Positions 4,120 through 26,117 of a stretch of 36,373 bases of DNA are shown piece after piece. A program made the position numbers and the translations under genes. Position 1 is the first letter of the stretch. Every line of letters begins with the position of its first letter. The notes beneath the pieces were generated by a model. It was not told the DNA's origin and did not search any database. It worked only from the letters and a program-made list of their open reading frames with translations. The stretch is from Solirubrobacterales bacterium. GTDB taxonomy: Bacteria; Actinomycetota; Thermoleophilia; Solirubrobacterales; Solirubrobacteraceae. The stretch is from assembly GCA_013815355.1 (NCBI GenBank), contig JACDGG010000010.1:1-36373 (forward strand), written 5' to 3'.

Positions 4120-5148
4120 TCAGGTCTCGGCGTATGCGTCCTCGACGAAACGCGACAGCTCGTGCGCCGCCTCGCGCACGGTCGCGATCGCGCCGGCGTA
4201 GTCCATCCGCACCGGCCCGATCAGCGACACGGTACCGAGCTTGCGGCGCGCCATTCCGTAGCCGGTTGCGACCAGCGCCAGCGAGTGCATCGCGGGAAGC
4301 TCGTTCTCATGGCCGATCCGCACGTACACGCCCGGCTCGGCGAGCGCGGTGCGCAGCACGCTGAGCAGCGCAACGCGTCGCTCCAGCAGGCCGATCAGCT
4401 CGTTGACGTTGGTCGCGTCGGCGAGCTGCGCCGCCTCGAACAGACGAGCGGTGCCCTCGACATAGAGAGCATCCTCCCCCTCGGCCGCGAGGTCGCTGAA
4501 GGCGGGGGCGAAGCGCTCGAGGAACGCCAGCTCGCGCGCCGTCAGGCTGGGGTCGAGCAAGCGCTGTCCCAGCATCCGCGCTCCGAGCACGAGACCCACG
4601 AGGCGGTCGTTGAGATACTCCGCCGCCCATGAGACGAGCCCGGAGTCGACGGCCCGGTCAAAGCTCGCGAGCATCTTTGAGACGCTGCCCGTGGAGGTGA
4701 TCACGACCACCAGCACCAGCTGCGGCTGCAGCGCGAGCACCTCGACGTGGCGGATCGTCGCGCTGGTCATCGAGGGCGCGGAGACCACCGCGAGCAGATT
4801 GGTCATCTGCGAGAGCGTCTCTGTGGTGGCGCGCATCGCCTCGTCGAGCTCGCGGCGGATCAGAGAGAGCTCGAGCGGCTGGCGGGGCGCGGGAAGGGTC
4901 TGTTCTCTGCTGAGCATGCGGTCGACGACGTAGCGGTGTCCGGCGTCGGTCGGGACGCGCCCGGCCGACACGTGCGGGTGCGCGAGCAGGCCGTGCTCCT
5001 CGAGCAGCGCCAGTTCGTTGCGCACCGTGGAGGGGCCGCAGTCGAGCTCGGGGTCGGCGGCGATAACGCGCGAGGCAACCGGCTGAGCGGTCCTCAGGTA
5101 ATCGTCGACCACCATGCACAGAATCCGCTCCTGGCGGGAGGTCAGCAT
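4120..5148 (-). CDS. hrcA: Heat-inducible transcription repressor HrcA
   Basis: The product is 342 residues, the usual HrcA size. The N-terminal winged helix (LTSRQERILCMVVDDYL, then GPSTVRNELALLEEHGLL and HVSAGRVPTDAGHRYVVD) is the HrcA signature. The rest matches the GAF-like dimerisation domain, ending IGPVRMDYAGAIATVREAAHEL. Family knowledge: HrcA binds the CIRCE operator and represses chaperone operons. The start is decided by a TACAAT hexamer (5160-5155) six bases before the ATG, giving a leaderless transcript. I could not find a convincing CIRCE; only one half resembling GAGTGC lies in the -35 area. Confidence 0.95.
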   Translation of the reverse strand: MLTSRQERILCMVVDDYLRTAQPVASRVIAADPELDCGPSTVRNELALLEEHGLLAHPHVSAGRVPTDAGHRYVVDRMLSREQTLPAPRQPLELSLIRRELDEAMRATTETLSQMTNLLAVVSAPSMTSATIRHVEVLALQPQLVLVVVITSTGSVSKMLASFDRAVDSGLVSWAAEYLNDRLVGLVLGARMLGQRLLDPSLTARELAFLERFAPAFSDLAAEGEDALYVEGTARLFEAAQLADATNVNELIGLLERRVALLSVLRTALAEPGVYVRIGHENELPAMHSLALVATGYGMARRKLGTVSLIGPVRMDYAGAIATVREAAHELSRFVEDAYAET

Positions 5149-6322: not shown

Positions 6323-6733
6323 CTAGAAATCCAGGCCGTCGTCGGCCCCACCGGCGCCGACACCCGCCAGCTCTCCGCCCTCCTCGGCCCGACGCTCGCC
6401 TGGGGAGTCGAGGAACATCACGCTGTCGGCGACGATGCTCACAGCCTGGCGCTTCTTCTGCTCGGCCTCCCACTCGCGCCACTCCAGGCGCCCGTCGATG
6501 GCCACCCGGCTGCCCTTGCGCATGAACTCGGCGACGTTCTCGCCCGCCGCCCCGAAGGAGCTCACGTCGAAGTAGTTGGGCCGCTCGGAGTAAGTGCCGT
6601 CGGCGTCGCGCTGACGGGAATTACAGGCTATGCGCATCGCGCAGACGCTGGTCCCTGAGGGCAGGGCGCGCAGCTCGGGATCCTGCGTCAGGCGGCCGAC
6701 CAAGACCACCCTGTTGATCGAGTACTGGGACAT
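6323..6733 (-). CDS. ssb: Single-stranded DNA-binding protein
   Basis: The product is 136 residues with an OB fold: NRVVLVGRLTQDPELRALPSG, FDVSSFGAAGENVAEFMRKG and SRVAIDGRLEWREWE are the SSB core. The tail ends in ADDGLDF, an acidic tip that keeps the terminal Phe needed to contact partner proteins. The start ATG 6733 is chosen because conserved sequence begins there and GGAG precedes it by 6 bases. Reading direction and position put it at the end of the conjugation-like cluster, 50 bases after the replication-relaxation-like gene. Its short length and this context suggest an accessory rather than the housekeeping SSB, but this is inference. Confidence 0.88.
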   Translation of the reverse strand: MSQYSINRVVLVGRLTQDPELRALPSGTSVCAMRIACNSRQRDADGTYSERPNYFDVSSFGAAGENVAEFMRKGSRVAIDGRLEWREWEAEQKKRQAVSIVADSVMFLDSPGERRAEEGGELAGVGAGGADDGLDF

Positions 6734-6783
6734 GTGGGCTCCATTTTCACTAGATGGTTGACCCCCCTCCGGCAGGCTAGATC

Positions 6784-7509
6784 TCAATGGGGATGGTTCT
6801 CTATGCAGGCCAGCGAAGCAGCGTCGAATCCGAGGCCGCCGGGGGCGATCAGCGTTACGCGCTCAGTCGCCTGAGCGTCTGAGATCGCGCGCTCGAGCGC
6901 TCCTCGGACCTCGGCAGGAGCGATGTAGATGACGCCCGCGACACATGCACAGCGCGCCCATGCTCGGCAGATCGATGCGAGTCGCCGGGGCGCCTTGATC
7001 GTCAGCTCGACCTCGACCGCGACCGGCAGCCCGCGAGTCGCCGGCGGCCAGATGACGAGGTCGGGGCGGTGGAGCAATGCAGTCCCATCCGGGACGGCGC
7101 CGAGGCAAGCGCTGGCCAGGGCGGCGCCCCGCTCGTGCTCATCGCGGCGCAGCTCGCGCTCCCCCATCACCTGGTGATCGGGGTATGCGCGCTCGAGCGC
7201 GGCCGCAGCCCCCGCGCAGGCGATCGCATGTTGCGCGTTGGCCGCGCTGATGCGCGCCGGCTGCAACCCGCGCGCTCCCGCCAGGCGCATGCCCGAGTGG
7301 GTGGTTGAGAACAGCGCGGGCCTGCCGAGGAGGGGCTGTGCTCGCAGCAGCAGTCCCTCGCGCACTGCGACGAGCAGACGTGCACGCGCCGAGGCCACAC
7401 TCGCCTGCTCGCGATGCGCGAGCGCCTCCGCTGTGACGGCGCCCATCTGCGCCGTCCATCTGACGATCTCCAAGCGCGCGACCGGGTGGATTGTTCTTGG
7501 CGAGACCAT
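6784..7509 (-). CDS. Replication-relaxation-like protein (winged helix plus possible PD-(D/E)XK-like core)
   Basis: The product is 241 residues from ATG 7509 with Shine-Dalgarno AGGAG. The first ~75 residues look like a winged helix (LEIVRWTAQMGAVTAEALA, then SVASARARLLVAVREGLLL and a ST-THSGMRLAG wing). The second half contains RPDLVIWPP followed by PVAVEVELTIKAPRRL. This is a PD...ExE..K pattern as in restriction-like nuclease folds and in replication-relaxation proteins of plasmids and integrative elements. The domain order matches the C-terminal part of the 1263-residue protein at 11652-15443. Whether it cuts DNA is unknown. It lies between the coupling ATPase gene and ssb. Confidence 0.6.
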   Translation of the reverse strand: MVSPRTIHPVARLEIVRWTAQMGAVTAEALAHREQASVASARARLLVAVREGLLLRAQPLLGRPALFSTTHSGMRLAGARGLQPARISAANAQHAIACAGAAAALERAYPDHQVMGERELRRDEHERGAALASACLGAVPDGTALLHRPDLVIWPPATRGLPVAVEVELTIKAPRRLASICRAWARCACVAGVIYIAPAEVRGALERAISDAQATERVTLIAPGGLGFDAASLACIENHPH

Positions 7510-7600
7510 GAGTTCTCCTGTCTTTTGATGTCGAGCGCCGACCCCCCAGCCGCCCGCCGGCAGATGAAGGGGCCGGCGAGGTGTGGTGTGCTCCGCGCGT

Positions 7601-9226
7601 TCAGCTCAGCGCCGGCGCGGCCTGGATCTGCGTGATGCGTGCCTGCCCTGCGGCGCCGAGCACGAGCACCGCGCCCCAGCCGGTGCCCAGGCCCATGATC
7701 CGATCCGGCTCGAGCACACTGCGCTTGCTACGGGTGCGCGTGCTCCTGCCGTCGCTGTGCTGGGAGACCTTCCATGTGCCTTCGCTTCCGGCCACGGCAG
7801 CGATCAGCTCGGCCGAGGCCGGGACGACCTGGCGGTGGGCGATCAGCAGTGAGAGATTGCCCATCACCTGCTCGAGCAGACGCTCGCGTCCCGGCAGACG
7901 CAGATCTGAGATCTCCTGGGTTCCCAGCATCAGGCTGAAGCCGGCCGATCGCGCTCTCCCGAACAGCCGCACGACCTGCTCCGCCGCGACGGCGGAGAAC
8001 TCATCGATGATCACCGCCGTCGGCACCGGGCGGCCCTGGAGCGCCGCGACCGTCGTCTGCAGATCCTGCACGATCGCCGCACCGATCATCTGAGCCAGCA
8101 ACGGCCGGGTGTCGGATTCCAAGCGGAAGTACACGACCGCCCGTTCAGCGACCGCCGCCGGCAGCGCCAGCTGAGAAGCCCCCGCGGTGCTCGGCTCAAG
8201 CCACGGCCCGACGTCTGACTCCACGAGGATCGCGAGCCGGTCACGAACCCCGGCCAGGTCTCGCTGCTGGCGGCTCGTGAGCGAATCGAGGTAGGCGAAC
8301 GTCGCGGCGGCCGCGGGCTCGGGCAGACGGCGGGCGAGCAGCTCCAGCCGGGAGGGGTCGAGCTGAGCCACGATCTCGCCCAGGCTGATCTCCTCGCCGC
8401 TGCGACGCAGCGTCCGAACGACATGGCCTAGGTAACGCTGTGCCTGGCGCAGGTAGTGCGGCTCGGTGAACAGCTCGCCGGCCAGCACCTTGTCGGCGAT
8501 CTCGGTGTCGCTGCCGATCGCATACGGGTTATAGACACATCCCCCGCGCGGGGTCCATTCCGTGAATTGGCGCTCGGAGATGCGAGCAGCGTGCTGCAGT
8601 TGCTCGCGCATCGCCTCATCGCCCTTGGGGTCCACGACGATCACTCCCATCCCACGGGCTATCGCGGCGAGCGCCATCGCTGTCTGTGTGACCGTCTTGC
8701 CTGAACCGGTGGCGCCGACGATCAGGGTGTGCATCGCTCCGGCGGGTCCCGCGAACGGCACGCGCACGTCGCGGTGCTGCTCGTCGTGGCCGATCAGCAT
8801 CCCCGGCTCGGCCGCTCGGGAGCCAGGGACGCCCAGCTCGCCTGCGAGGAGCTTCAGCCGCGGGCGGGCGATCGAGGCCAGATATGTCGACGGCCGGCTC
8901 CCGCGAGCTGCGATCTCTGCGAGATCGCCACCGGCCTGGAGGTCTTCTCGGTGCCAGCGCCGTGCCCGCACCGTTGCGGCGAGAGCGGTGGCAGCGAGCG
9001 CGAGCTGCAAGGAGCCGAGAAGGGGGCCAATCAGCAGGATCACCGGCAGCGAAACTGCACTCCAGCTCCAGTGCAGATGACGGGTGCGTATCAGGCGAGC
9101 GCCCAGCAGTCCGATCATCACTGCGAGCGCGAGCTCGAAGATCGATCCGGTCAGGACGTGCAGGAGCTGCTCCGGGTAGGCCAGCAGGTCTTCCCGAGGT
9201 TCGGTGGTTGCATCGGATGAGGGCAT
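7601..9226 (-). CDS. TraD/TraG-type type IV coupling protein (conjugative DNA-transfer ATPase)
   Basis: The product is 541 residues. Start ATG 9226 has Shine-Dalgarno AAAGGAG. Two hydrophobic segments (about 21-46 and 54-86) form the N-terminal membrane anchor typical of coupling proteins. Walker A is GATGSGKT (171-178), VVDPKGD is at 197-203, Walker B is AVIIDEF (404-410) and the sensor region is MLGTQEISDLRLPG (433-446). Family knowledge: these hexameric FtsK-like motors deliver relaxase-bound DNA to a type IV secretion channel. No relaxase or channel gene lies in the same cluster. Sizes and motifs are normal, so the ATPase should be active. Confidence 0.85.
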   Translation of the reverse strand: MPSSDATTEPREDLLAYPEQLLHVLTGSIFELALAVMIGLLGARLIRTRHLHWSWSAVSLPVILLIGPLLGSLQLALAATALAATVRARRWHREDLQAGGDLAEIAARGSRPSTYLASIARPRLKLLAGELGVPGSRAAEPGMLIGHDEQHRDVRVPFAGPAGAMHTLIVGATGSGKTVTQTAMALAAIARGMGVIVVDPKGDEAMREQLQHAARISERQFTEWTPRGGCVYNPYAIGSDTEIADKVLAGELFTEPHYLRQAQRYLGHVVRTLRRSGEEISLGEIVAQLDPSRLELLARRLPEPAAAATFAYLDSLTSRQQRDLAGVRDRLAILVESDVGPWLEPSTAGASQLALPAAVAERAVVYFRLESDTRPLLAQMIGAAIVQDLQTTVAALQGRPVPTAVIIDEFSAVAAEQVVRLFGRARSAGFSLMLGTQEISDLRLPGRERLLEQVMGNLSLLIAHRQVVPASAELIAAVAGSEGTWKVSQHSDGRSTRTRSKRSVLEPDRIMGLGTGWGAVLVLGAAGQARITQIQAAPALS

Positions 9227-9245
9227 TGCGCCACTCCTTTCATGA

Positions 9246-9360
9246 GCCTGCGCGGGCAGGCGGATTTGAGCCGGCGCTCGCCGGCCATTGACACGCAGGC
9301 CGCGCCGGCCGAAGGGCCGGTATCGGTGCCTGCGCGTTGGGCATGGCAGGCCCGAAGGCC
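9246..9360. repeat. Cluster of four short GC hairpins before the coupling-ATPase gene
   Basis: Four strong hairpins lie in the 190-base gap between the response regulator stop (9417) and the ATPase start (9226): GCCTGC/GCAGGC (9246-9261), GCCGGC/GCCGGC (9272-9287), CCGGCC/GGCCGG with a GAAG loop (9305-9320) and GGCC/GGCC with a CGAA loop (9349-9360). Read leftward, two loops become TTC-containing tetraloops. They may tune readthrough or stability of the operon mRNA. Confidence 0.6.
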
Positions 9361-9416
9361 CGTCCAAGTTCTTCGCGGGGCGAGAGCGCGCCACCGCTAC
9401 CGAGCAGCGGCGCGCG

Positions 9417-10127
9417 TCAGATCAGCCGATAGCCGACTCCCCAGACGTTGATGACCCAGCGCCGGGTCTGATCGACCTCGAGCTTGCGCCGCAGGCGACT
9501 CGCATGACTGTCCACGGTGCGTGTGGAGCCTCCGGAGCGATAGCCCCAGACGCCGCGCAGCAGCTGATCGCGCGTGAACACGCGCGAGGGCTCCCGGGCA
9601 AGATGGATGAGCAGGTCGAACTCCATGCGGCGCAGCATGAGCTCGCGACCGTGGAGGGTCGCGAGGTGAGCGTGACTGTCGATCACGAGGCTCTCGACTG
9701 CGAGCCAGCGCGTGGCGTCTCCCGAGTTTCTGACACGGCGCAGGAGCGCCCTCACGCGCGCACGCAGCTCGAGGTAGCCGCAGGCCCGTGTGAGGAAGTC
9801 ATCGGCGCCCGCTTCAAAGGCGCGGAGCATCTCCAGCTCATGCCCCTTGGCGCCGAGGACGATCGTCGGCATCGCGCGGTCCCACGGGGCGCAACCGGGC
9901 GGCGCTCGACGAATCTCCTCCAACAGCGTGAGCGCTCCGCGCGGGGCGTCTAGGTCGCCCAGAAGCGCGACCTCCGGCGCCCGGGCCCGAGCGAGGATGC
10001 GAGCGTGCTCGCTCGTGCGCGCGACCTCCACGCCGAAGCCGTCGGCGACGAGCTGATCGGCCAGTGCGCAAGCGCGCTCCCGGTCGGCCTCGACGATCAG
10101 GACCGGCCCCTCGGGGCGAGCGCTCAC
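9417..10127 (-). CDS. OmpR/PhoB-family response regulator (orphan, atypical receiver)
   Basis: The product is 236 residues. The receiver domain (about 10-120) reads VLIVEADRERA with LLGDLDAPRG, where the Asp before LDAP is the likely phosphoacceptor. The switch Lys of the usual TKPF motif is replaced by Arg (FLTRACGYLELRARVRALLRR). The C-terminal winged helix is complete: RRMEFDLLIHLAREPSRVF, RDQLLRGVWGYRS, then TVDSHASRLRRKL and VWGVGYRLI. The GTG start overlaps the stop of the upstream gene by four bases (GTGA). No histidine kinase is nearby. It probably controls the conjugation-like cluster in which it sits; the target sites are unknown. Confidence 0.85.
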   Translation of the reverse strand: MSARPEGPVLIVEADRERACALADQLVADGFGVEVARTSEHARILARARAPEVALLGDLDAPRGALTLLEEIRRAPPGCAPWDRAMPTIVLGAKGHELEMLRAFEAGADDFLTRACGYLELRARVRALLRRVRNSGDATRWLAVESLVIDSHAHLATLHGRELMLRRMEFDLLIHLAREPSRVFTRDQLLRGVWGYRSGGSTRTVDSHASRLRRKLEVDQTRRWVINVWGVGYRLI

Positions 10128-11080
10128 GCCACTTCCACCTCCCGGGGAGTCAAGCCGAGACCGCGACGGGCGATCAGGGCCAGCACGTCGCTGTGCACCC
10201 AGGGAGTCGGCGCGCCTCGTCCCCCCTCGGCGAGCAGCCCGACGCGGCGGGCGAGCCAGCTCGTCTCGCCACTCTCGTTGCCCTTGCGGTCGCGCTTCAC
10301 ACGCCCGCAGAGCCGTGCGATCTCGCTCATGCTTCGCCTTTCATTTGCGACGTGCGCGAGCACCGCCTCGCGGAGCCTACGGTTGAGCACGATCGGGCTC
10401 TCGCGGACACGCACGAGCTCCGCCTCGAGGACGCTCGTCGAGATCTCACCGTCGCCCTTGTGCAGCGCGAGCATCCCTTCTGTCAACGAGCAGGCCGGCT
10501 CGTAGTGCTCGAGATTCCCAACGACCTCGCGGAGACTGAGGGTTCGCATCGCAGGGGCGCCGTCTGCTGTCTCACAGCCCCACCGCAGCTCGGGGATCGC
10601 GACGCGTCCCGCGACCAGGCGCAGCGCGTAGGCGTGCCCCTCGCGATCGCGAGGCATGCTCGCAGAGGCGAGCGCCGTGATCTGCGCGGCGTCGCACCCG
10701 AGCGGGGCGAGCGGATCGATGCGCGCGTCCTGCTCGGTGAGAGCCCGGCAGCGAGCCGGATCGGGGGGATCGCTCTGAAGGTAGTCGCGGCAGATCAGCG
10801 CGGCGTTCTCTGGGGGCTCATCCGCGGCGAGGTGCGCCAGGAGCCTGCGGTCTGCGCTCGTGGCAAGGTCGCGGTCGATGACGAGCACCGAGCCCAGCGA
10901 TCCGGTGCGCGCGACGATCTCGCGATCGTGTCCGGAGCTGTCGGTGTAGAGCGCGAGCGCTTGCGGAGCTCCTCCGGCCGGGTCCGAGACGCGCCGGCAT
11001 CCACCGGATCGGCGGTGGCGGGCAGGCTCGCGCTCGGTGTTGCGGTGTCGGGCGATCGTGTCGGATGAGCTGGCGGGCAT
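10124..11080 (-). CDS. Unknown protein with C-terminal helix-turn-helix-like region
   Basis: I do not recognise a named family for these 318 residues. The start ATG 11080 is firm: AGGAGG precedes it by 4 bases. The first ~35 residues are basic and disordered-looking. The middle includes LVIDRDLATSADRRLLAHLAAD (about 85-106). The C-terminal third (SMSEIARLCGR, then SGETSWLARRVGLL and PTPWVHSDVLALIARRGLGL) resembles a DNA-binding helix-turn-helix followed by a conserved tail. The four-base overlap with the response regulator gene means the two are made together. A DNA-binding partner of the cluster is a guess from this context. Confidence 0.6.
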   Translation of the reverse strand: MPASSSDTIARHRNTEREPARHRRSGGCRRVSDPAGGAPQALALYTDSSGHDREIVARTGSLGSVLVIDRDLATSADRRLLAHLAADEPPENAALICRDYLQSDPPDPARCRALTEQDARIDPLAPLGCDAAQITALASASMPRDREGHAYALRLVAGRVAIPELRWGCETADGAPAMRTLSLREVVGNLEHYEPACSLTEGMLALHKGDGEISTSVLEAELVRVRESPIVLNRRLREAVLAHVANERRSMSEIARLCGRVKRDRKGNESGETSWLARRVGLLAEGGRGAPTPWVHSDVLALIARRGLGLTPREVEVA

Positions 11081-11651
11081 GTTTCCTCCTGGGGTGCGTT
11101 TGGCGGCGGTGGGGGCGGGCGTCGATGGGAGCGCACGCGCAGCTCGTCAAGCCGCTGGCGTGGATGCTCCGGGGCTTCTCGAGGGACTCCGAGAGCTCCC
11201 AAAGGGCGTCTCGGACCTCGGTGTGCACGCGGGCGAGCGGGGGATGAAGCTGGCGCGCAAGCGCTCGCGACCATCACATCCACGACCCGAAGCTCTCGGC
11301 GTCGCGCGGTGGCTGCTCGTTGCTCACTCAGACGAGCGAGGTATGTGTGGGCGAGGCGGAGAGATCTGGGGTAAGGAGGTGGGGCGGCGCACACTAGCCC
11401 GAGTCTGCGATTGGATCGCGGGCGCATCGCGCTGCGCGCTTCTGCGCCCGCAGTCGCCTCCCGTCGCGTGCTGCAATTCCGCTCTGCAATGCTGGATCTC
11501 GTGATGAGGTGATGCATTTGCGTGGCTCCTGGCACGGGGGGCGACGGCGTCACGCTGCGTGCCGGAACAGTGGTGACTGCACGGCGTGACCGGGCGACTG
11601 CGCGATGCGGCGGGCGAACGCATGAACGGCTGCGTGCCAAAGCGGCGGGGG
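11081..11651. other. 571-base gap within the conjugation-like cluster
   Basis: No clear gene is present. On minus, a frame from about 11330 to 11100 has coding-like third positions and reads LARVHTEVRDALWELSES around 11228-11180. It is broken by a TGA near 11270 and runs into the next gene in another frame. It may be a decayed small gene. CTGCAAT occurs twice, at 11471-11477 and 11484-11490 (13 bp apart), as a possible operator half-site pair. The gap is the likely promoter region of the two regulator genes downstream. Confidence 0.4.
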
Positions 11652-14600
11652 TCACGGCAGCGCCTCGGAAGCGAGCAGAACGACGCTGCGCTGCTCGATC
11701 TGCGTCTCGGCCGCCCGGCGATCGCCGCGCGCCGCGGCAACCCGGAGGTGCGGGGGAAGCCGCGGGACTCCGTAGGCGCACAGCAGCCGCTCGTGGATGT
11801 CGCGCTCGGACACGAACAGCGTCTGCTCGCGCCCCTGGTACTCCCAGTCCTGGGGGTACTCCCCGGCATACGCGCGAGAGGCGCGCAGGACCGTGTCGGC
11901 CTGTCGTGCGCAAGCTCGCGAGCGAGCCCGGTCGCGGCAGATGAACACGACCAGAGGCGTGGCCAGCATGCGCTCGCCGTAGCGACGGGTGTGCGCTGCC
12001 CAACCTGTGAGGAAATGGTCGTAGCGCTCGAGCTTGGCGACGCCGCGCGCGTCGAGCAGGCGATCGTCGCGCTCGAGGATCAGATCGATCGCGTGAGCTT
12101 CCTTCGTGAGAGGCGCCTCGATCTCGACGATGGCGCCTGGGCGCAGCGAATCGAAGCGCTCCGCGGCAGCGGCGTTGCCGGCTGCATCGGTGCGCAGGAA
12201 GTCGTGGGCCGAGCGCCCGCCCGGGAGCCGCAGCTCTCCCGGTGAGAGCCTCGCGCGGCCGTGCGTCCGGGCAGGTTCGGGCACGAGCAGGCTCGCCTGC
12301 TCTGGACCGCGCACGACCGGCCCGGAAGAGGCGCCGACCACGTCGATCAGCGCGAGCACCCAGCCGGCGAGGTGAATGTCGCGGCGAGCCTCATGAAGTC
12401 GCGCCTCGCCGCCGCTAGGCGGCGCATCGACTGGCCGGGCATCGGCCGCCAGGGCGCTCTGGCCCTGAGCCTGGGCGCCCGCGAGCGCCCGCAGTCCCCC
12501 GGCGCTGAGCCGGTAGGCCATCGGCACGCCACCGCCGTCGCGACGATGAAACTGAAAGCGCTCGACGAGCCCCGCGTCCGAGAGCCGCTTCAACCGGCGC
12601 TGGGTCGTGCTGGGCGCGCGGCCCGGATTGTGATGGCGGTGGATCTGGCTGCTGAGAAGGTGGCGCAGCGAAGCGATCGAGGTGAGGATTTCGAGGTCCA
12701 GGGCATCCGGCTGATGGGCGCGAGCCGGCCGGGCGGGCCTCGCGACTCGAGCGCTGTGGGCTCTATCCAGATCGACGAGCTCGCGATAGCTCGGCGCGGC
12801 GATATCCGGCAGGCTCGTATCCGGCCCGACCGCCGAAACGAGCGGCGAGCGCTCTTGAGCGGGGCGCTCAGGCGGTGCCGGCGCGGTCCGGAGAATCCTC
12901 TGCGGATGATCCCAGTGGGGCTGTCGCAGGTCGCTGAGATGCCGTGCCCCGCGTTCCTGCTGGCGCGCGGCGTGAGCTGCGAGACGCTCGTGGTCGACGG
13001 CCATCGGCAGCGTGCGCGCGATGAACGAGCTCTGGCGCCCGCCGGCCGTAAGCCAGCTTGCGACCGCGTGATGCTTGGGGAGATGCAGGCGCACATCGGG
13101 GTATCCGAGCGCGGAGAGACGGCCGATCCCCGGTCTGACGGTATCTGAGAACTCAGCCATCGTGAGCGACACTGCCGAGCGAGCGTCCTTGACCGAGGAG
13201 GTGGCGAAGTACACGCGATGAGCAAAGAGGGCATCGAGCTGCTCGCGCACATCGCGGTCGATCCACTGAGAATCCGTCTGCCAGCACGCGACCGTCTCAA
13301 GGCCGGCGGAGCGCTTCAGCGCCATCGTCTCGGCGAAGCCGCGATTGATCACGAGCGGCGCCTCATCGATCTTGAGCGCCACCGCGATGCGCCGCTCACC
13401 TGCCACGAGGTCCTGCTGGCGGGCGAGGGCCGCGTCGAGCATCCCGACCAGCAGTTGCATCAGCACCGAGGTGTTGCCCGCGCCCATCGAGCCGAGCGCT
13501 CCCTTGACGACGAGCACCTCGGCGCCGGCGATCACGCGATCGAAGTCGACGCGCAGCGCGTCGTTGAGCAGGACGCGCTTGATCGACGGCGAGTTCAGCA
13601 GCCGCGCCAGCTTGTTGACGGGCGCGTCGAGCTTCGCGGTCGTCGTGGCGCGCGAGTCGGCGAGCTGCGCGGAGAGCTCGGCCGTGAAGAACGAGCTGAT
13701 CTCCTTCAGCTCAGGAAGCGTCCTGACGTGCGCTCCCACGCTCGCGCGGTAGGAGTACCCCTCCTCTCCTACCGAGAGCAGGCGCGCGGCATCCCACAGC
13801 GTCGAGCGTCGATCGTGCGCGAGCACGGCGATGATCGAGTTGCGCAGGTAGCGGTCTGAGGAGGCGCGGATGTCCGCGTCGGTAAACAGGTTCTTCAGCG
13901 CGGCCACGACGTAGTCGGCGATCACGTCCGCCGGCGCATCGACGGCGAGCGGGTTGAAGCCGCAGGTGGGATGGGCGAAGTCGAGAAGCGTGCAGGTGCG
14001 GTCGAGCGGCACGGCGCTCAGCGTGGCGTCGGCCGCGTCGCCCTTGGGGTCGAGCACGATCACGGCGCAGCGCTCGCGACGCACGTCCTCTGCGACGGTC
14101 GCGACCAGGTAGCTGGACTTGCCCTGCTCGACCGTGCCCGGGACCGCGGTGTTCTGCTTGCGCAGCTCCTCAGCGATTGTGACCGGGCCGACCGAGTCGC
14201 AGAGCGTGCCAGCGCCGGCAGGCCGCGAGATCCCCGCTGGCGCCGGCGCCAGCGGCAACCCCGAACGTGCGACGGGCACGTTGAGATAGTCGAGCGAGGG
14301 GAGCTGCCAGAGCGATGCCAGCTCACTCGTCGCGAACACGCCCTTACGGAAGGACGGCAATGGGTTGCCCTCTCCTCTCTGCACGCGGCGCGTGTAGAGC
14401 CCGAGCAGGCCGTGGCGTATGGCCGTCCCGCGCTCCACGAGCCTGTTCTCGGCGAGCTCGATACGCAGCTCTGAGGCGATCCGCTCGCAGGCGACGCGCT
14501 CGGCGGCGACGATCCTCAGCTCTGCGAAGAACAGGCTGTGGTGCTGAACATCCAGTCCTCCTCGAAGCTCCGCGTCGTCGAGCATCGAGCGGTCGTGCAT

Positions 14601-15443
14601 GACCGCTCCCTCGCGGCGCTCACGAGACAGTCGCGCCTCGCGACTCTTGAACGCGTGCCTTGCGAGCTTCTCAAACGCCGCCGGCGTGGGCGTGAGGGCG
14701 ATCTGCACGAAGGCAGGCGCTCCCCCGACGCCCATCACCGTGAGCAGACGGTTGACCGAGGGCTCGCGTTCGTGCTCGAAGCGATCCAGCGCACGCGCGC
14801 GCATGACGAACTCGCGGTGCTTCTTCAGACGCAGGACTGCCGGCGGATCACCCACACGCCACTCGCATGGGGCCAGACGGCAGCTGGGATATGCATTGCG
14901 CAGAGCTGCCTCCACAATCGACTCGAGGCCATGCGGGCAGCTCACCGCGAGCCAGCCCGCGGGAGCCCGCGGGTCGCCGCCGTAATGCACCTCGAGCGCC
15001 AGCGAGGGCTGCCCTTGCAGCAGGCGTCGCCACCATCGGTGCTGCAGCCGCCGGTGCAGTGCCTCGAACATCCGGGGCAGCGCATCAGCCTCGGCGTGAT
15101 CGCCCCGGTAAGGCTCGACGACGAGTCGCACGTAGCGGCGGCGGCGGCGCGCTCGCCCGCGAGCGAGCGCGATCAGGAGTGCGGCGAGGAGCGTCAGCGC
15201 CGCCAGCATCTGCAGCGGCGCGAGCGCGCCAAACAGCTTCCAGCCCCAGATCGCTCGCGCCTCGCGCCCGACCGCGCCTGCGACGGTTCTTCCGTGGGCT
15301 CGGGCTGCGTGCTCTCGGCTCTGACCACGCAGGATGCGCCCGGGGCCGCCGTCGAGAAACCACGCGAGCGAAGCGGCCCCGCCGATCGCCGCGAGCAGTC
15401 CAAGCATCCGCCACAGAAGGAAGCGCAGCACGTGCTGGCTCAT
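11652..15443 (-). CDS. TraG-like ATPase fused to a replication-relaxation domain
   Basis: The product is 1263 residues. Two N-terminal hydrophobic segments (about 5-30 and 70-95) anchor it in the membrane. A region of ~300 residues follows without a motif I recognise. The ATPase has Walker A GTVEQGKS (436-443), VIVLDPKGD (462-470) and Walker B ALKIDEA (689-695), as in TraG/VirD4 and HerA-type motors. From about 914, LEILTSIASLRHLLSSQIHR and TTQRRLKRLSDAGLVERF form a winged helix. A C-terminal core (IDLILERDD, AKLERYDHF, TPLVVFICRD) matches the replication-relaxation family. The same domain types appear as separate genes at 6784 and 7601. No Shine-Dalgarno is obvious before ATG 15443. Fusion of motor and DNA-binding domain suggests a DNA-translocating machine. 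Confidence 0.75.
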   Translation of the reverse strand: MSQHVLRFLLWRMLGLLAAIGGAASLAWFLDGGPGRILRGQSREHAARAHGRTVAGAVGREARAIWGWKLFGALAPLQMLAALTLLAALLIALARGRARRRRRYVRLVVEPYRGDHAEADALPRMFEALHRRLQHRWWRRLLQGQPSLALEVHYGGDPRAPAGWLAVSCPHGLESIVEAALRNAYPSCRLAPCEWRVGDPPAVLRLKKHREFVMRARALDRFEHEREPSVNRLLTVMGVGGAPAFVQIALTPTPAAFEKLARHAFKSREARLSRERREGAVMHDRSMLDDAELRGGLDVQHHSLFFAELRIVAAERVACERIASELRIELAENRLVERGTAIRHGLLGLYTRRVQRGEGNPLPSFRKGVFATSELASLWQLPSLDYLNVPVARSGLPLAPAPAGISRPAGAGTLCDSVGPVTIAEELRKQNTAVPGTVEQGKSSYLVATVAEDVRRERCAVIVLDPKGDAADATLSAVPLDRTCTLLDFAHPTCGFNPLAVDAPADVIADYVVAALKNLFTDADIRASSDRYLRNSIIAVLAHDRRSTLWDAARLLSVGEEGYSYRASVGAHVRTLPELKEISSFFTAELSAQLADSRATTTAKLDAPVNKLARLLNSPSIKRVLLNDALRVDFDRVIAGAEVLVVKGALGSMGAGNTSVLMQLLVGMLDAALARQQDLVAGERRIAVALKIDEAPLVINRGFAETMALKRSAGLETVACWQTDSQWIDRDVREQLDALFAHRVYFATSSVKDARSAVSLTMAEFSDTVRPGIGRLSALGYPDVRLHLPKHHAVASWLTAGGRQSSFIARTLPMAVDHERLAAHAARQQERGARHLSDLRQPHWDHPQRILRTAPAPPERPAQERSPLVSAVGPDTSLPDIAAPSYRELVDLDRAHSARVARPARPARAHQPDALDLEILTSIASLRHLLSSQIHRHHNPGRAPSTTQRRLKRLSDAGLVERFQFHRRDGGGVPMAYRLSAGGLRALAGAQAQGQSALAADARPVDAPPSGGEARLHEARRDIHLAGWVLALIDVVGASSGPVVRGPEQASLLVPEPARTHGRARLSPGELRLPGGRSAHDFLRTDAAGNAAAAERFDSLRPGAIVEIEAPLTKEAHAIDLILERDDRLLDARGVAKLERYDHFLTGWAAHTRRYGERMLATPLVVFICRDRARSRACARQADTVLRASRAYAGEYPQDWEYQGREQTLFVSERDIHERLLCAYGVPRLPPHLRVAAARGDRRAAETQIEQRSVVLLASEALP

Positions 15444-15469
15444 CCGACCGAACGGCAGCGATGGGACGG

Positions 15470-15522
15470 GTCGCCGCGGCGCGCCCGGCGGCGCCCGGGC
15501 ACCTGGCGGTGCCCGCGGCGAC
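15470..15522. repeat. Nested palindrome (possible cruciform) before the large ATPase gene
   Basis: An outer 10-bp inverted repeat, GTCGCCGCGG (15470-15479) and CCGCGGCGAC (15513-15522), encloses a second hairpin with CGGGCACC/GGTGCCCG arms around TGGC. It fills the 109-base gap between the TetR-MarR stop (15553) and the ATPase start (15443). It could be a terminator-like block after the regulator gene or an operator. Confidence 0.65.
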
Positions 15523-15552
15523 GTGTTGTGAGGCTAGGTGCTGCTCAGGCGC

Positions 15553-16539
15553 TCAGCGCGGCCGTGTGGCGCGCTCGACCTGCGCGCCTCGCGCCGTCAG
15601 ATGCCAGGCGTTCGCAGCACCCTTCTCCTGGCCCTCGCCTCGGTTCTCGACGAGGTTCAGCCGGCCCAGGCGGTTGAGGAGCTTTGAGATCTGTCCCTGG
15701 TCGATGATGCCCGAGCCTTCCGCGATCTCGCGGTTGCTCGCGCCGGGATGCTCGGCGATGACCATCAGCACCCGCACCGTGCGGTAGGTGAGGCGCATGT
15801 TGAGACCTTCGAGTGGGTCCCTGCTGCGCGTCTGTGAGCGAGTCTGCCGGTCGCGCGCGACCTCCATCGCGGGCCTGGCGAGTTCGCGGCTCGCCGCGCG
15901 CGCGCCGAGGTAGGGCAGCACGATCATGCTCATCAGCGGTCCGAGCAGGTCCGTCAACGGCTCGTCTGCCTCATCCAGCAGGCGCGTGTGCAGCACCGCA
16001 AAGATGCCGCCGACGATCCCTTCGGCGGTGACCGCGGGCGGTTCGCGTGTGGTGTTCGTGAGGTGGCGACCCTGATCGATCACGGCTGCGATCTCATCGA
16101 GCAGCTGCGCACGCCGTTCGAGCACCTTCTCACCGGCCGCGAGCGCCTCCACGACGCACAGCTTGGCCAGACCCGGCTCTTCGTCCATGAACATCAGGAG
16201 CCGGCCGAGCGCGGCGCGAACTCCCTCGCGCCAGACGTCTCCCTCGCGTTCGTATGCCTCCCGCGCGATCAGCCGCGTCTGGGAGACAGCCTGTTCAAAG
16301 GCAGCCAGGAAGCAGTCCTCGCGATCGGCGAACACGTCATAGAAGGTCTTGCGCGAGACGCGGGCGCGGCTGATGACCTGGGCGACGGTCATGCGCGCGT
16401 AGCCGACCTCCTCGACCGCGTCCACCGCCGCAGCGAGCATTCGACTGCGTTGAATCTCGGTGACCTGGCCGCGCGGCAGGCCGTTGGGGCCCGGGCGTAG
16501 CCTTGGTGTCGCGGCACGTGTCTTGTACATAAATGCCAT
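15553..16539 (-). CDS. TetR-family regulator fused to a MarR-type winged helix
   Basis: The product is 328 residues. Residues about 28-80 are a TetR helix-turn-helix: SRMLAAAVDAVEEVGYARMT, then ISRARVSRKTFYDVFADRE. A TetR ligand-binding core continues to about 215. After a linker rich in Arg/Ser/Thr, a second DNA-binding domain begins at about 238: MRLTYRTVRVLMVIAEHPG, ASNREIAEGSG, GQISKLLNRLGRLNLVEN. This is the MarR layout. TetR proteins alone are about 200 residues, so this is a true fusion. It is the first gene of the leftward cluster and the likely repressor of it. The ATG overlaps the stop of a possible 63-codon ORF (TAATG). Confidence 0.85.
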   Translation of the reverse strand: MAFMYKTRAATPRLRPGPNGLPRGQVTEIQRSRMLAAAVDAVEEVGYARMTVAQVISRARVSRKTFYDVFADREDCFLAAFEQAVSQTRLIAREAYEREGDVWREGVRAALGRLLMFMDEEPGLAKLCVVEALAAGEKVLERRAQLLDEIAAVIDQGRHLTNTTREPPAVTAEGIVGGIFAVLHTRLLDEADEPLTDLLGPLMSMIVLPYLGARAASRELARPAMEVARDRQTRSQTRSRDPLEGLNMRLTYRTVRVLMVIAEHPGASNREIAEGSGIIDQGQISKLLNRLGRLNLVENRGEGQEKGAANAWHLTARGAQVERATRPR

Positions 16540-18414: not shown

Positions 18415-18498
18415 GCGGATGTGGCGGAATTGGTAGACGCGCACGGTTCAGGTCCGTGTCTGGGCAACCAGGTGGAGGTTCGAGTCCTCTCATCCGCA
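18415..18498 (+). tRNA. tRNA-Leu (anticodon CAG), integration target
   Basis: The 84-base class II tRNA has acceptor GCGGATG/CATCCGC plus A73, anticodon stem CACGG/CCGTG around TTCAGGT (anticodon CAG), a variable arm CTGGGCAACCAG and T-arm GGTTCGAGTCC. CCA is not encoded. Its 3' part from the anticodon loop onward is repeated at 31225 and 32178, so it is the attachment gene of the elements to the right. The copy here is intact, so function is kept. Confidence 0.95.
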
Positions 18499-18499
18499 T
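18447..18499 (+). repeat. att copy 1 (inside tRNA-Leu)
   Basis: This 53-bp segment, from the anticodon loop to one base past the tRNA 3' end, is identical to 31225-31277 and differs at one base from 32178-32230. It is the left boundary of element A. Confidence 0.9.
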
Positions 18500-18566
18500 A
18501 GCAAGAAAACCCTGGAAATCGGCTTCTCTTGAGTTTCGTCGCAGGCGGCGGGTAGACTCTGGGCAT

Positions 18567-18620
18567 GGACGTAATGTTGTCATTTGGCAAATGCGTCCAC
18601 TCGTACGTCCATTTGCGTCC
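18567..18620. promoter_or_regulatory. Candidate arm-type integrase sites, left end
   Basis: Between att copy 1 and the integrase start lie GGACGT (18567-18572) and three GTCC-containing boxes (GCGTCC 18593-18598, ACGTCC 18605-18610, GCGTCC 18615-18620), plus the palindrome CATTTG-G-CAAATG just before them. Similar boxes precede the other two att copies, so they probably bind Int or Xis. Confidence 0.5.
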
Positions 18621-18656
18621 GCCCTGTTGCCAGCCGACGTACGGCGGGGTCTTGAC

Positions 18657-19997
18657 ATGAGCGTCAGGCAGGATCGGGGCGCCTGGGAGGTGCGGTGGCG
18701 CGACGGATCGGGCCGCAGACGAGCCAAGCGCTTCGACGACGAGCAGGCGGCGCGCGCATTCGACGAAGCCCTCGGTGAGGTCGCCCCAATCGAGCGGCGC
18801 TCGGACACGGCCACCTACGGTGCCAAGGGCGGCGTCTACTCGTACGACACCGCGCAGGGAACGCGCTGGCGCTACGTATTCCGGCGAACCGACGGGACGC
18901 AAACGAGCAAGCGCGGATTCAGTAGCCAAGCGGCTGCGCGGACCGCTTTGCGTCGCCTCACTGAGCAGATGGACCGGGGCGAGGTGCGCCACACGACGCA
19001 GACATTCGGCAGCTGGTGGGAGACCTGGCTTCAGCGGCGCAAGCCATATCTCGAGCCGAACGCCTGGAGGGCTTACGACGTCGACGGGCGTAAGCGGCTG
19101 CTCCCGGCTTTCAGAGACGTGCGACTCGACAAGCTCGAGATCGAGAACGTCCGCGCATGGATGCAGGAGCAGGGCGAACGGGTCGAAGCCCAAGAGGTCG
19201 CGGCCAAGACGATCAACAACACGCTGGGGACGTTGGTCGTCTGTCTCAACGCGGCGGTCAAGGACCGAGTGACAGCGAGCAACCCCGCCATCGGGATCGA
19301 GCGCCTGCCTCCGGCGCACATAGAGCACGATTATCTGCGCCTCCAGGAGATCCCCGCCTACCTCGACGCCTGCTTGTCCGTGTACCGACCGCTCGCCGAG
19401 GTTCTGGTGCGGGCGGGCCTGCGTATCTCCGAGGCAATCGCCCTCCAGATCGCCGACGTCGAGCTTGAGGCCACCGGCGGCTTCATCGTCGTGTACCGAT
19501 CGCACAAGAAGGCGCGGACCCGAAAGACAACCAACGGGTCGACGAAGGGCGACCGATTCCGCAGCGTTGAGATCGGCCCTGGGCTCAGCCGCACGCTTCA
19601 GGAGCAACTCGCGCGCAGGGCGGAGATGGCCAGCGGCGACCAGAAGAGCTCGCCGGTCTTCGTGATGCCGCTGCGAACGCGCAAAGCCGACCGCGGACGC
19701 TGGTCGAGCGCTGGCGACCCAGAGCCGTTTGACCGCAACACCGTCTCGCAGGACTGGCACAAGGTTGGCCTGCAGGACGCGGCGCTGCGAGACATGCCGC
19801 TGCACGCATTGCGCCATACCGCCGCAGCAGCGTGGCTTGCGGGCGGTAACTCGTTGATGTATGTGCAGCGTCAACTCGGTCATGCGGACATCGGGACGAC
19901 CGAGCGCTATTACGGGCATCTGGAGCGTCACGTGCTCGCGGCGGGTGCGATCGCGACTGAAGAAGTGATCGCTCGCGCTGTGGCGGCGAACAGGTAG
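18657..19997 (+). CDS. int: Tyrosine recombinase/integrase
   Basis: The product is 446 residues. Start ATG 18657 is chosen because conserved sequence (RGAWEVRWRDGSGRRRAKRF) begins there; the upstream frame runs through the tRNA genes. N-terminal arm-binding, AP2-like segments (1-45 and 58-100) precede a SAM-like core-binding domain (about 115-215). The catalytic residues are all present: Arg256 in AGLRISEA, His383 and Arg386 in HALRHT, His409 in LGHADIG and Tyr418 in TTERYYGH. It should cut and join the tRNA-Leu att core. It lies 158 bases from the att copy, reading into the element, and is convergent with the excisionase-like gene 6 bases away. Confidence 0.95.
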   Translation: MSVRQDRGAWEVRWRDGSGRRRAKRFDDEQAARAFDEALGEVAPIERRSDTATYGAKGGVYSYDTAQGTRWRYVFRRTDGTQTSKRGFSSQAAARTALRRLTEQMDRGEVRHTTQTFGSWWETWLQRRKPYLEPNAWRAYDVDGRKRLLPAFRDVRLDKLEIENVRAWMQEQGERVEAQEVAAKTINNTLGTLVVCLNAAVKDRVTASNPAIGIERLPPAHIEHDYLRLQEIPAYLDACLSVYRPLAEVLVRAGLRISEAIALQIADVELEATGGFIVVYRSHKKARTRKTTNGSTKGDRFRSVEIGPGLSRTLQEQLARRAEMASGDQKSSPVFVMPLRTRKADRGRWSSAGDPEPFDRNTVSQDWHKVGLQDAALRDMPLHALRHTAAAAWLAGGNSLMYVQRQLGHADIGTTERYYGHLERHVLAAGAIATEEVIARAVAANR

Positions 19998-20003
19998 CGC
20001 TGC

Positions 20004-20294
20004 TCAGCGTCGCGCGCGGGCGCGGGCGCGCGAGTGGATTGGTGGGATCTCGGCGGCGAGTCGCGTGGCACGGGTCGAGCGGCCTGGCGTCCATTGCGCG
20101 CGCGCGTCGTCGAGCCATTGCTGTACGTCCTCGGGTACGAACCTGAGCGGCCCGTCCTCTCCGCCGATGCGGATCGAGGGTATGCGCCCGGTCTTCGCTG
20201 CTTCGTAGAGCCATGAGCGCGAGACACCGAGTTGTGCCGCTAGCACGGTGGGCTTCAGCAGGGCCAACGTTGTCTGTGATTGAGCATCTTCCAT
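20004..20294 (-). CDS. Excisionase-like helix-turn-helix protein
   Basis: The product is 96 residues (101 if ATG 20309 is used). LLKPTVLAAQLGVSRSWLYEAAKTGRIPSIRIGG is the winged HTH-17/MerR-like fold of small excisionases, followed by LRFVPEDVQQWLDD. The basic tail is rich in Arg/Ala. Family knowledge: such proteins bend DNA at att sites to favour excision, and some also repress int. It lies tail to tail with int, as in many actinobacterial integrative elements. Which ATG is used is not settled. Confidence 0.75.
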   Translation of the reverse strand: MEDAQSQTTLALLKPTVLAAQLGVSRSWLYEAAKTGRIPSIRIGGEDGPLRFVPEDVQQWLDDARAQWTPGRSTRATRLAAEIPPIHSRARARARR

Positions 20295-20359
20295 GTCGTT
20301 AATGAGCATGGATCGTCCGCTCCGGCCAGCGAGTTCCGAGGAGTCCGTCGAGTCGGGCG

Positions 20360-20809
20360 CTAGTCGAGCCAGTCAACGGGCGGTGGGCCAGGGGTCCAGG
20401 TGCTTCGGACGCCGCCGCCTTGGCTGCGGAGGGTCTCGCGGTACTCTCCGAGTTGAGCGTGGAAGGCGAGCTCTTCGCGGGGGTCCTGGCCGTGCTCGTC
20501 GAGTGCAGCGCGCCAGGCAGAGAGCGCGCTGAGCTGCTCGGCTTCGGCCTCGTCGTTCCACCAGCCGTCTTTGAGGTGTTCAAGGTGGCGTGGATAGCGG
20601 CCGTGAAGCGCGACGATCGCGCCCCACGTTTGCCGGCGCCACTCCGAGTCGCCACCGTAGGGCTCAAGCCAGACGGGGCGCCCGGAGCCGGGTGCGGCGC
20701 GAGCCGCACGCGGGCTTGCGGATCTGCGTTTGGCTGCCCTGGTTCGCGATCTCGTTGCGGACGAGTGTCGCGGCGAGAGTCGATGGCGATTCGCCAGCGG
20801 CGTCTGCAA
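20360..20809 (-). CDS. Hypothetical protein of the relaxase operon (start uncertain)
   Basis: The frame is 149 codons from a TTG at 20809, overlapping the RHH gene by 146 bases. The convincing protein part begins about residue 45: RPVWLEPYGGDSEWRRQTWG, then HGRYPRHLEHLKDGWWN and LSAWRAALDEHGQDPREELAFHAQLG. It is Trp- and Glu-rich and ends TPGPPPVDWLD. I do not recognise a family. The N-terminal 45 residues are Arg/Ser-rich and may be an artefact of overlap; a start inside the RHH gene is more likely. It could be a relaxosome accessory protein because it follows the relaxase and RHH genes. Confidence 0.5.
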   Translation of the reverse strand: MQTPLANRHRLSPRHSSATRSRTRAAKRRSASPRAARAAPGSGRPVWLEPYGGDSEWRRQTWGAIVALHGRYPRHLEHLKDGWWNDEAEAEQLSALSAWRAALDEHGQDPREELAFHAQLGEYRETLRSQGGGVRSTWTPGPPPVDWLD

Positions 20810-20867
20810 GATCAGTGAGTTCTCGCGCGACCTGGTCGGGGATGACGATGTGGATGCGTCGGCTCAT
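20664..20867 (-). CDS. Ribbon-helix-helix-like accessory protein
   Basis: The product is 67 residues. MSRRIHIVIPDQVARELTDLADAAG followed by SPSTLAATLVRNEIANQ is the beta-strand plus two-helix layout of RHH repressors and mobilization accessory proteins. The ATG overlaps the relaxase stop by four bases (ATGA, 20867-20864). The C-terminal 25 residues are basic and overlap the next gene. A likely role is binding near oriT and helping or limiting the relaxase; this is inferred from position. Confidence 0.6.
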   Translation of the reverse strand: MSRRIHIVIPDQVARELTDLADAAGESPSTLAATLVRNEIANQGSQTQIRKPACGSRRTRLRAPRLA

Positions 20868-23515: not shown

Positions 23516-23787
23516 CACACCCCTTCAGAGCGCGAACCGCGAAAGACGGCCAAGCAATCAGGCAGCACCCGCACGGGCGTGCATCTGGTGTGGTTGGGCA
23601 GTAGCGGAGCGAAGCGACGCGCAGCCGTTGTTGTGGCGCGGTTGGACGCGAACGCCGCGAACGGTAGGCGTTGGGATCGGCGAGACGAGTCCGGCGCGGG
23701 ACGTCTGGCAGGTCGACTGGGCGGACCGGCGATAACTCAGGTGGCAGCTGCGGTCGGTGAAAAGGGCGTCGAGTCTGACGGACCTCA
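23516..23787. other. Intergenic region upstream of the relaxase, possible oriT
   Basis: These 272 bases hold no convincing gene. A GCAC-GGGC-GTGC hairpin lies at 23571-23582. Relaxase origins usually lie just upstream of such genes, so an oriT here is plausible, but I see no known nic sequence. A short frame resembling a TetR helix (ITQVAAAVG, near 23730) may be a remnant. Confidence 0.3.
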
Positions 23788-24468: not shown

Positions 24469-24790
24469 GCTGCAGACCCATGGACCTTGGTAGGCGGCGG
24501 CGCAGCGAGTCGCAGCGCGGCTTCTACTGCGGTCTCGGGGCTGCTCAGGACGACACGCCCGCCCTTCACGAGGGCTGCGGCGCCAGCCATCGACGCTTGG
24601 GCCAGCACCACCACGTCGATCTTCGGCTCCAGGGCGTCAACGCACTCCGCGACTACGCGATGGTAACCGCCGATATCGCCCTGCTCCAACCGCCTCCACG
24701 CGTCAAAGCACGGCGCGTCGAGAAGCGTGATGTCTCTGCGCGCCGCCGAGGCAACTTCGAGCAGTAGATCGCGCGTCACCGTTTCGTCCC
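24465..24790 (-). pseudogene. Asp/Glu racemase-like C-terminal remnant
   Basis: The last ~105 codons of an open frame read LLDAPCFDAWRRLEQGDIGG, then IDVVVLAQASMAGAAALV and VVLSSPETAVEAAL. These match the C-terminal half of Asp/Glu/hydantoin racemases, including a loop where the second catalytic Cys of the family is replaced (AQASM). The N-terminal half is missing; upstream of about 24790 the same frame is only the reverse of the rightward gene at 24807. It stops by a four-base overlap with the DJ-1 gene, so the two were once an operon. Confidence 0.65.
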
Positions 24791-24806
24791 GTTGGGAGCG
24801 GACGAC

Positions 24807-26043: not shown

Positions 26044-26049
26044 GGGATT

Positions 26050-26105: not shown

Positions 26106-26117
26106 AGCTTTGGTGGC

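What the first reader, a model, noticed from the sequence alone, without database searches (positions are those of the whole stretch)
6323..16539. Conjugation-like gene cluster with two coupling-type ATPases but no relaxase or channel
Seen: ssb, a replication-relaxation-like protein, a TraD/TraG ATPase, a response regulator, an unknown HTH-like protein, a second TraG-like ATPase and a TetR-MarR regulator, all leftward. Known: such ATPases normally serve a relaxase and a type IV channel. None is present, nor an integrase. Inference: this could be a chromosomal DNA-translocation, uptake or defence system, or the core of an unknown transfer element.
Basis: partly seen in the sequence, partly recalled or inferred. 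Interest (0 to 1): 0.85.

Follow-up and report, generated by a model that had tools for sequence, protein, structure and literature searches.

The report
Chromosome-fixed MOB_C relaxase–coupling-protein module
Soil bacteria of the order Solirubrobacterales carry, at a fixed place in the chromosome, a DNA-nicking relaxase and its DNA-pumping partner of a kind otherwise known from mobilizable plasmids, but no transfer channel, so their chromosomes may be built to be exported when a channel is supplied.

Summary
The seven leftward genes exist as described, but two statements about them are wrong. (1) A relaxase is present: the "replication-relaxation-like" protein (6784-7509) is a MOB_C-type relaxase homologue, with a winged-helix N-terminus and an HRPD...VAVEVELTxK motif shared by these chromosomes and Firmicutes plasmids typed MOBC. 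The next gene (7601-9394) is its VirD4/MobB-like coupling ATPase, the pairing known from CloDF13. (2) An integrase and a MobF relaxase lie in the same window at 18-24 kb, on a separate integrative element in tRNA-Leu (53-bp exact att repeats 18447/31225). The cluster is not part of that element. Comparison of about 25 relatives shows it is chromosomal: traG-like–hyp318–(RR)–T4CP–relaxase–SSB sits beside hrcA-dnaJ-prmA in this genus and two others, is absent from that site in other genera, and its trees correlate with the hrcA tree. In another genus the relaxase–T4CP pair is fixed beside relA-recJ-secDF. VirB4 is missing from the window's genome and most relatives. Catalytic motifs are kept and dN/dS is 0.23-0.33 in a g17 pair. 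Best reading: a domesticated, channel-less mobilization module, probably mobilizing chromosomal DNA through a helper channel. The transfer function is inferred, not shown.

The parts
6323..6787 (-). ssb1, single-stranded DNA-binding protein, retained even in relatives that lost T4CP and relaxase
   Evidence: PF00436 1.1e-29; 52-75% identical next to hrcA in relatives
6784..7509 (-). MOB_C-type relaxase homologue: N-terminal winged helix, C-terminal PD-(D/E)xK-type motif HRPDLVIW...VAVEVELTIK
   Evidence: NF041423 MobC family 1.3e-4; motif invariant (P149, D150, E166, E168, K172) in 21 aligned sequences including plasmid relaxases; family HMM hits plasmid MOBC proteins end to end, 2e-31 to 3e-12
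7601..9394 (-). VirD4/MobB-like coupling ATPase (T4CP), N-terminal TM segments, intact Walker A (GATGSGKT) and Walker B (IDEF)
   Evidence: PF12696 7e-9; TIGR03743 4e-29; best solved match DotL, then FtsK and TrwB; motifs conserved; TM scan
9417..10127 (-). orphan OmpR-type response regulator; paralogues lie beside or near TrwC relaxases in integrative elements
   Evidence: PF00486, PF00072; 56%, 39% and 37% paralogues near trwC in L155, L166, L167
10124..11080 (-). hyp318, unknown protein with conserved C-terminal VLNRxLREAV...GETSWLARR...PWVHSDVLALIAR region; paralogues in integrative elements
   Evidence: no Pfam/NCBIfam/PHROG match; 23 of 24 genus genomes; alignment A1; element paralogues beside ArdC, SSB, ParB, integrase
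11652..15443 (-). traG1263: TM segments, TraG/VirB4-like ATPase (Walker A GTVEQGKS) and a C-terminal Replic_Relax (MOB_C-type) domain; PD reads RPG in this copy
   Evidence: PF13814 4e-11 at 920-1038; TIGR03743 1e-7; alignment A2; homologues in other genera sit beside VirB4 and TrbL
15553..16539 (-). TetR+MarR two-domain regulator, neighbour in about half of the relatives; probably not core
   Evidence: PF00440, PF12802; tree does not follow hrcA
4120..5148 (-). hrcA, chromosomal anchor of the locus (with dnaJ 2997-4109 and prmA 2110-3000)
   Evidence: PF01628 1e-45; syntenic in relatives
18447..31277 (.). separate integrative element in tRNA-Leu(CAG): tyrosine integrase (about 18591-19997 +), Xis-like (20004-20309 -), TrwC/MobF relaxase (20864-23518 -), ssb2 (26118-26687 -); not part of the cluster
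   Evidence: tRNAs; 53-bp exact att repeat 18447-18499 / 31225-31277; PF00589, PF08751 3.5e-61; the same tRNA pair without int/trwC before acs-gt4 in G109

Best explanation
The locus is a chromosome-fixed mobilization module of the MOB_C type. The MOB_C-like relaxase (6784-7509) would bind a cis origin through its winged helix and nick it with its PD-(D/E)xK-type centre. The membrane-anchored T4CP (7601-9394) would take the nicked strand and pump it, and SSB would protect the strands. The response regulator and hyp318 would control the module or assist the relaxosome. traG1263, a coupling/VirB4-like ATPase fused to a second MOB_C-type domain and related to ATPases of real T4SS loci, would be a second motor. 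With no channel encoded, export would use a T4SS supplied by a resident ICE or plasmid, as CloDF13 does, and would mobilize flanking chromosomal DNA in the manner of an Hfr, or serve the MobF integrative elements that lack a T4CP. Shown here: gene identities, motifs, fixed position, age, selection, absence of a channel. Inferred: nicking, an oriT, DNA export, the helper.
For: Relaxase: NCBIfam MobC; the motif PD-x(n)-VA[VLI]E[VL]EL[TS]xK is kept in nearly all orthologues at both chromosomal loci, in elements and in Carboxydocella and Paenibacillus plasmids typed MOBC, and by eye in the CloDF13 region (PDRLAELDGRTVAFEVERTVKSR). A family HMM recovers the plasmid relaxases over their whole length. 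The N-terminus matches MarR-type winged helices, as described for TraX of pAD1 (PMC12857230). Partner: T4CP next door, best solved match DotL/FtsK/TrwB; the few mobilizable plasmids with their own VirD4 also carry MobC (PMC5704250); MobB of CloDF13 works with a helper T4SS (PMC7431656). Fixed locus: hrcA-linked in g1, g4, g18, absent from the same site in 7 genomes of other genera, relA-recJ-linked pair in g17, Mantel r 0.57-0.90 against hrcA for module genes. Selection: dN/dS 0.23 (T4CP) and 0.33 (relaxase) in a g17 pair, like recJ 0.22; Walker motifs kept. No channel: no VirB4 in the own genome, 4-5 of 24 in the genus, against 21/24 T4CP and 23/24 hyp318.
Against: No oriT-like sequence was found; intergenic regions are not conserved. 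Relaxase and T4CP are lost in G090, G095 and G100 while ssb1 (and RR/hyp318 in two of them) stays, so the module is dispensable and its parts may have other roles. VirB4 is so rare in the genus that a helper channel is often lacking. traG1263 in the window has PD changed to PG. The CloDF13 sequence held is frameshifted and scores only weakly (E about 0.009). No experiment on any chromosomal member was found.
Confidence: 0.6

Rival explanations
1. The module has been repurposed for a cellular job other than transfer (DNA-end processing, segregation or anti-phage defence), with the nuclease-like protein and the FtsK/HerA-superfamily ATPase acting on the cell's own or invading DNA.
For: Vertical retention beside housekeeping genes without a channel; PADLOC mad8 matches the T4CP at 9.5e-19; nuclease plus HerA/FtsK ATPase pairs act in repair and defence (general knowledge; NurA-HerA in PMC5365140).
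Against: mad8 matches genuine plasmid T4CPs equally well (5e-19) and no other MADS component was matched. The relaxase motif is the MOB_C one and the partner keeps T4CP features and TM anchors. Related relaxase-T4CP pairs occur next to integrases in other genomes.
Confidence: 0.2
2. It is a slowly decaying relic of an old ICE/IME inserted beside hrcA, without present function.
For: Partial losses in G090, G095, G100; PD changed in traG1263; no att sites or oriT found.
Against: Walker and relaxase motifs are kept in nearly all of about 35 copies; dN/dS 0.23-0.33 in a g17 pair; present in 18-23 of 24 genus genomes.
Confidence: 0.15
3. It exports DNA without any T4SS, the membrane ATPases forming the pump themselves, as TdtA of Thermus or TraB of Streptomyces do.
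For: The own genome and most relatives lack VirB4 although motors and relaxase persist; TdtA with a neighbouring nuclease donates DNA without a T4SS (PMC5365140).
Against: The T4CP is of the VirD4/DotL type, whose known members need a T4SS; no channel candidate was found.
Confidence: 0.12
4. The locus belongs to the neighbouring tRNA-Leu element and is ordinary ICE baggage.
For: Integrase and MobF relaxase lie 1.7-7 kb away.
Against: The att repeats exclude the cluster; relatives have the cluster without that element and the tRNA site without int/trwC.
Confidence: 0.03

Closest known systems
MOB_C mobilization module of plasmid CloDF13 (MobC relaxase + MobB T4CP)
   Same: Relaxase with PD-(D/E)xK-type motif beside its own VirD4-type membrane T4CP; no channel encoded
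   Different: Chromosomal and vertically inherited rather than plasmid-borne; adds SSB, response regulator, hyp318 and a T4CP-MOB_C fusion; no oriT identified
MOBC-typed plasmids of Paenibacillus polymyxa and Carboxydocella (L189, L187)
   Same: Adjacent relaxase and T4CP of the same two families, same motif
   Different: Those are plasmids; the Paenibacillus one also has TcpE-type channel genes
Streptococcus IMEs with MobC and VirD4 (PMC5704250)
   Same: Integrated mobilizable module with own coupling protein, needs a helper
   Different: No integrase or att sites here; fixed position across genera
Actinobacterial T4SS loci in G134, G139, G005
   Same: Encode homologues of traG1263 with a Replic_Relax domain, fused or in the adjacent ORF
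   Different: Those loci include VirB4, TrbL/VirB6 and (G139, G005) lytic enzymes; this one has none
Thermus TdtA/ICETh1 transjugation
   Same: FtsK/HerA-superfamily DNA pump plus nuclease, no T4SS
   Different: TdtA is HerA-like with NurA, on an excisable element; here the nuclease is MOB_C-like and the locus is fixed

Membership tests
MOB_C relaxase | PD-(D/E)xK-type catalytic motif shared with MobC/TraX | tested here: met
   HRPD...VEVELTxK: P149, D150, E166, E168, K172 invariant in A5, shared with plasmids typed MOBC; CloDF13 match weak because that record is frameshifted; TraX itself was not compared
MOB_C relaxase | N-terminal winged helix | tested here: met
   A5 positions 2-70 match MarR-type winged helices of solved structures, weak E-values of 0.003-0.05
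MOB_C relaxase | site-specific nicking at an oriT | not testable with these tools
   needs biochemistry; no conserved oriT candidate found
VirD4-type coupling protein (T4CP) | membrane-anchored ATPase with Walker A/B and TraG-D_C domain | tested here: met
   PF12696 7e-9, TM segments, invariant motifs, best PDB match DotL
Conjugative element (ICE) | VirB4 and mating-pore genes in the locus | tested here: not met
   none in the locus or own genome
Integrative mobilizable element (IME) | integrase and att sites bounding the module | tested here: not met
   no integrase between the anchors in syntenic relatives; the window's integrase and att bound a different segment
MADS anti-phage defence | co-occurrence of the other mad genes | tested here: not met
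   only the mad8-like ATPase matches, and plasmid T4CPs match it too

The most novel reading that the evidence does not exclude
An actinobacterial lineage has domesticated a MOB_C relaxase and T4CP as a host-controlled DNA donation system that exports chromosomal DNA without its own, or any, type IV channel, twice fixed beside housekeeping genes (hrcA and relA).
Probability: 0.2. Interest if true: 0.85.

Novelty: new variant of a known kind. Interest (0 to 1): 0.56.

Why it matters
Guglielmini et al. (PMC3158045) noted that actinobacteria show many relaxases but surprisingly few T4SS or coupling proteins. Here a relaxase with its own coupling protein is a near-core chromosomal locus in several genera where VirB4 is rare. 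If it works, the chromosome itself is the mobilizable replicon, which bears on how gene exchange happens in these mostly uncultured soil bacteria. It also shows how a relaxase can be overlooked when it is a MOB_C protein annotated as a replication-relaxation protein.

Tried and rejected
Cluster as part of the tRNA-Leu element: rejected by att positions and synteny. Defence system: only mad8 matched notably, not specifically. AlphaFold models: traG1263 (pLDDT 49; best Foldseek hit TrwK/VirB4 at E 0.003) and hyp318 (pLDDT 60; no hit) are too poor to use. oriT search in intergenic regions: nothing conserved. Sequence search of traG1263 against solved structures: none. Plasmid search for traG1263: six weak hits. 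Viral contigs for hyp318: two partial relatives, not followed. A 27-bp 78% repeat at 6248 and 18144 flanking the cluster was considered as an att pair and rejected, as it lies outside the tRNA-Glu gene and the flanks differ in relatives. Many weak phylum-wide hits of A5 (E above 1e-6) are winged-helix matches only.

Full report
What was checked. The window is contig C196 (36,373 bp) of a 3.2-Mb, 305-contig assembly, 91% complete. Named relatives are nearly all Solirubrobacterales/Solirubrobacteraceae MAGs. All seven ORFs of the finding are present at the stated coordinates. Domain searches give SSB, a T4CP, an OmpR-type regulator, an unknown 318-aa protein, a 1263-aa ATPase whose C-terminus is a Replic_Relax domain (PF13814, 4e-11), and a TetR+MarR protein.

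In the same window a tyrosine integrase ORF (18228-19997 +) and a TrwC/MobF relaxase-helicase (20864-23518 -, PF08751 3.5e-61) lie upstream. A tRNA-Glu and a tRNA-Leu stand at 18193-18499. The tRNA-Leu 3' end is repeated exactly over 53 bp at 31225-31277, and again with one mismatch at 32178-32230. This bounds an integrative element of about 12.8 kb that does not contain the cluster. In G109 the same tRNA pair is followed, without int or trwC, by the o32488-acs-gt4 genes that follow the element here.

The cluster is chromosomal. Mapping the window proteins on relatives shows traG1263-hyp318-(RR)-T4CP-relaxase-ssb1 next to o5519-o5194-hrcA-dnaJ-prmA in this genus and in genera g4 and g18. Order is disturbed by rearrangements: the hrcA block is inverted in G092, traG1263 is flipped in G110 and lies apart in some genomes; the RR gene is missing in several. 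In seven genomes of other genera the o5519-o5194-hrcA block is present without the cluster (L196-L202), so it was probably gained before the split of g1, g4 and g18. Tree distances of the module genes correlate with hrcA (r 0.57-0.90, p at most 0.007), about as well as prmA does (0.70); the TetR-MarR gene does not. Within the genus alone, rrl241 and hyp318 correlate only weakly with dnaJ. hyp318 is in 23 of 24 genus genomes, the T4CP in 21 (one of them weak), a strong relaxase match (E below 1e-40) in 18, a strong traG1263 match (E below 1e-170) in 19. MobF relaxases are in 12. VirB4 is in 4-5 and not in the window's own genome.

A second fixed locus. In genus g17 the relaxase-T4CP pair without the other genes lies between a 347-aa gene and relA-recJ-(97-aa gene)-secDF in 12 of 13 loci examined, as far as each contig reaches; the thirteenth contig does not show relA. 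hrcA is elsewhere in the two complete g17 genomes looked at. The T4CP was found in all 28 g17 genomes and a strong relaxase match in 25. For the pair G079/G082, dN/dS is 0.23 (T4CP) and 0.33 (relaxase), against 0.22 for recJ and 0.04 for relA. These g17 genes are under purifying selection.

The relaxase. MOB_C relaxases have a winged-helix N-terminus and a catalytic domain related to PD-(D/E)XK endonucleases, and form no detected covalent intermediate (PMC12857230; PMC8152469). rrl241 has a weak but correctly placed NCBIfam MobC match. Its motif HRPD...VAVEVELTxK is conserved at both chromosomal loci, in integrative elements and in Firmicutes plasmids that MOB-suite types as MOBC; P149, D150, E166, E168 and K172 are invariant in 21 sequences. 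A family HMM finds the Carboxydocella, Paenibacillus and Bacillus plasmid proteins over their full length (2e-31, 3e-18, 3e-12; small database). On those plasmids the next gene is the T4CP homologue. The CloDF13 record is frameshifted, but the mob region reads PDRLAELDGRTVAFEVERTVKSR.

The T4CP and traG1263. The 597-aa ATPase has two predicted N-terminal TM segments, invariant Walker residues, and DotL, FtsK and TrwB as best solved relatives. traG1263 has TM segments and a TraG-like ATPase fused to a MOB_C-type domain whose PD is RPG here but RPD in most relatives. In G134, G139 and G005 its homologues stand with VirB4 and TrbL/VirB6, with lytic enzymes in G139 and G005, so it is related to parts of real transfer systems. 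Its AlphaFold model is too poor to say whether it is VirD4- or VirB4-like.

The other genes. Paralogues of hyp318 and of the response regulator are found in integrative elements with SSB, ArdC, ParB and integrase, or near TrwC. They look like element control or maintenance proteins. hyp318 has no known family and its model gave no structural match.

Mechanism and verdict. Shown: a MOB_C-type relaxase homologue with its coupling ATPase, SSB and regulators, fixed in the chromosome, old, conserved, without a channel. Inferred: it nicks a chromosomal origin and feeds the strand to a channel supplied in trans, as MobB/MobC of CloDF13 do (PMC7431656; PMC5704250). A T4SS-free pump as in Thermus transjugation (PMC5365140) is not excluded. 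Partial losses in G090, G095 and G100 show that it is dispensable. The kind is known; its fixation in the chromosome at two sites, and the T4CP-MOB_C fusion beside it, I did not find described in the papers searched, which are open-access papers only.

Noticed in passing
window 18447-32230: Two tandem att copies of the tRNA-Leu 3' end downstream (31225-31277 exact 53 bp; 32178-32230 one mismatch). A HicA-like 63-aa ORF (31564-31755 -) lies between them, and a 73-nt stretch of it is repeated at 74% at 32308, suggesting two successive insertions.
   Followed up: partly
window 25337-25798: HEPN-domain protein (PF05168, 5e-15) inside the MobF element, possibly a toxin-antitoxin or defence cargo.
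   Followed up: no
L132-L135 (G092): One genome carries several integrative elements sharing hyp318, SSB and ArdC-like or metallopeptidase-like genes, some with ParB, with cargo such as a TIR-domain protein: a possible element family that I did not find described.
   Followed up: partly
L155, L166, L167: OmpR-type response regulators related to RR236 sit next to or near TrwC relaxases in MobF elements, hinting at a shared control of transfer.
   Followed up: partly
G000 contigs C44, C189, C252, C14 (L152, L153, L155): The genome has several further MobF relaxases, two on contigs that also carry a TraG-D_C match, yet no VirB4 was found; how these elements move is open.
   Followed up: partly
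window 15553-16539 and L048:654-1634: The TetR+MarR regulator is 90% identical to that of G097 while neighbouring cluster genes are 54-67%, suggesting recent exchange or stronger constraint.
   Followed up: no
window 6280-6315: A 36-bp stretch downstream of ssb1 recurs at 92% at an unrelated place in L063, possibly a dispersed repeat.
   Followed up: no
L190 (NC_002119.1): The CloDF13 record appears to contain frameshifts in the mobB/mobC region, which may be why MOB-suite calls it non-mobilizable.
   Followed up: no
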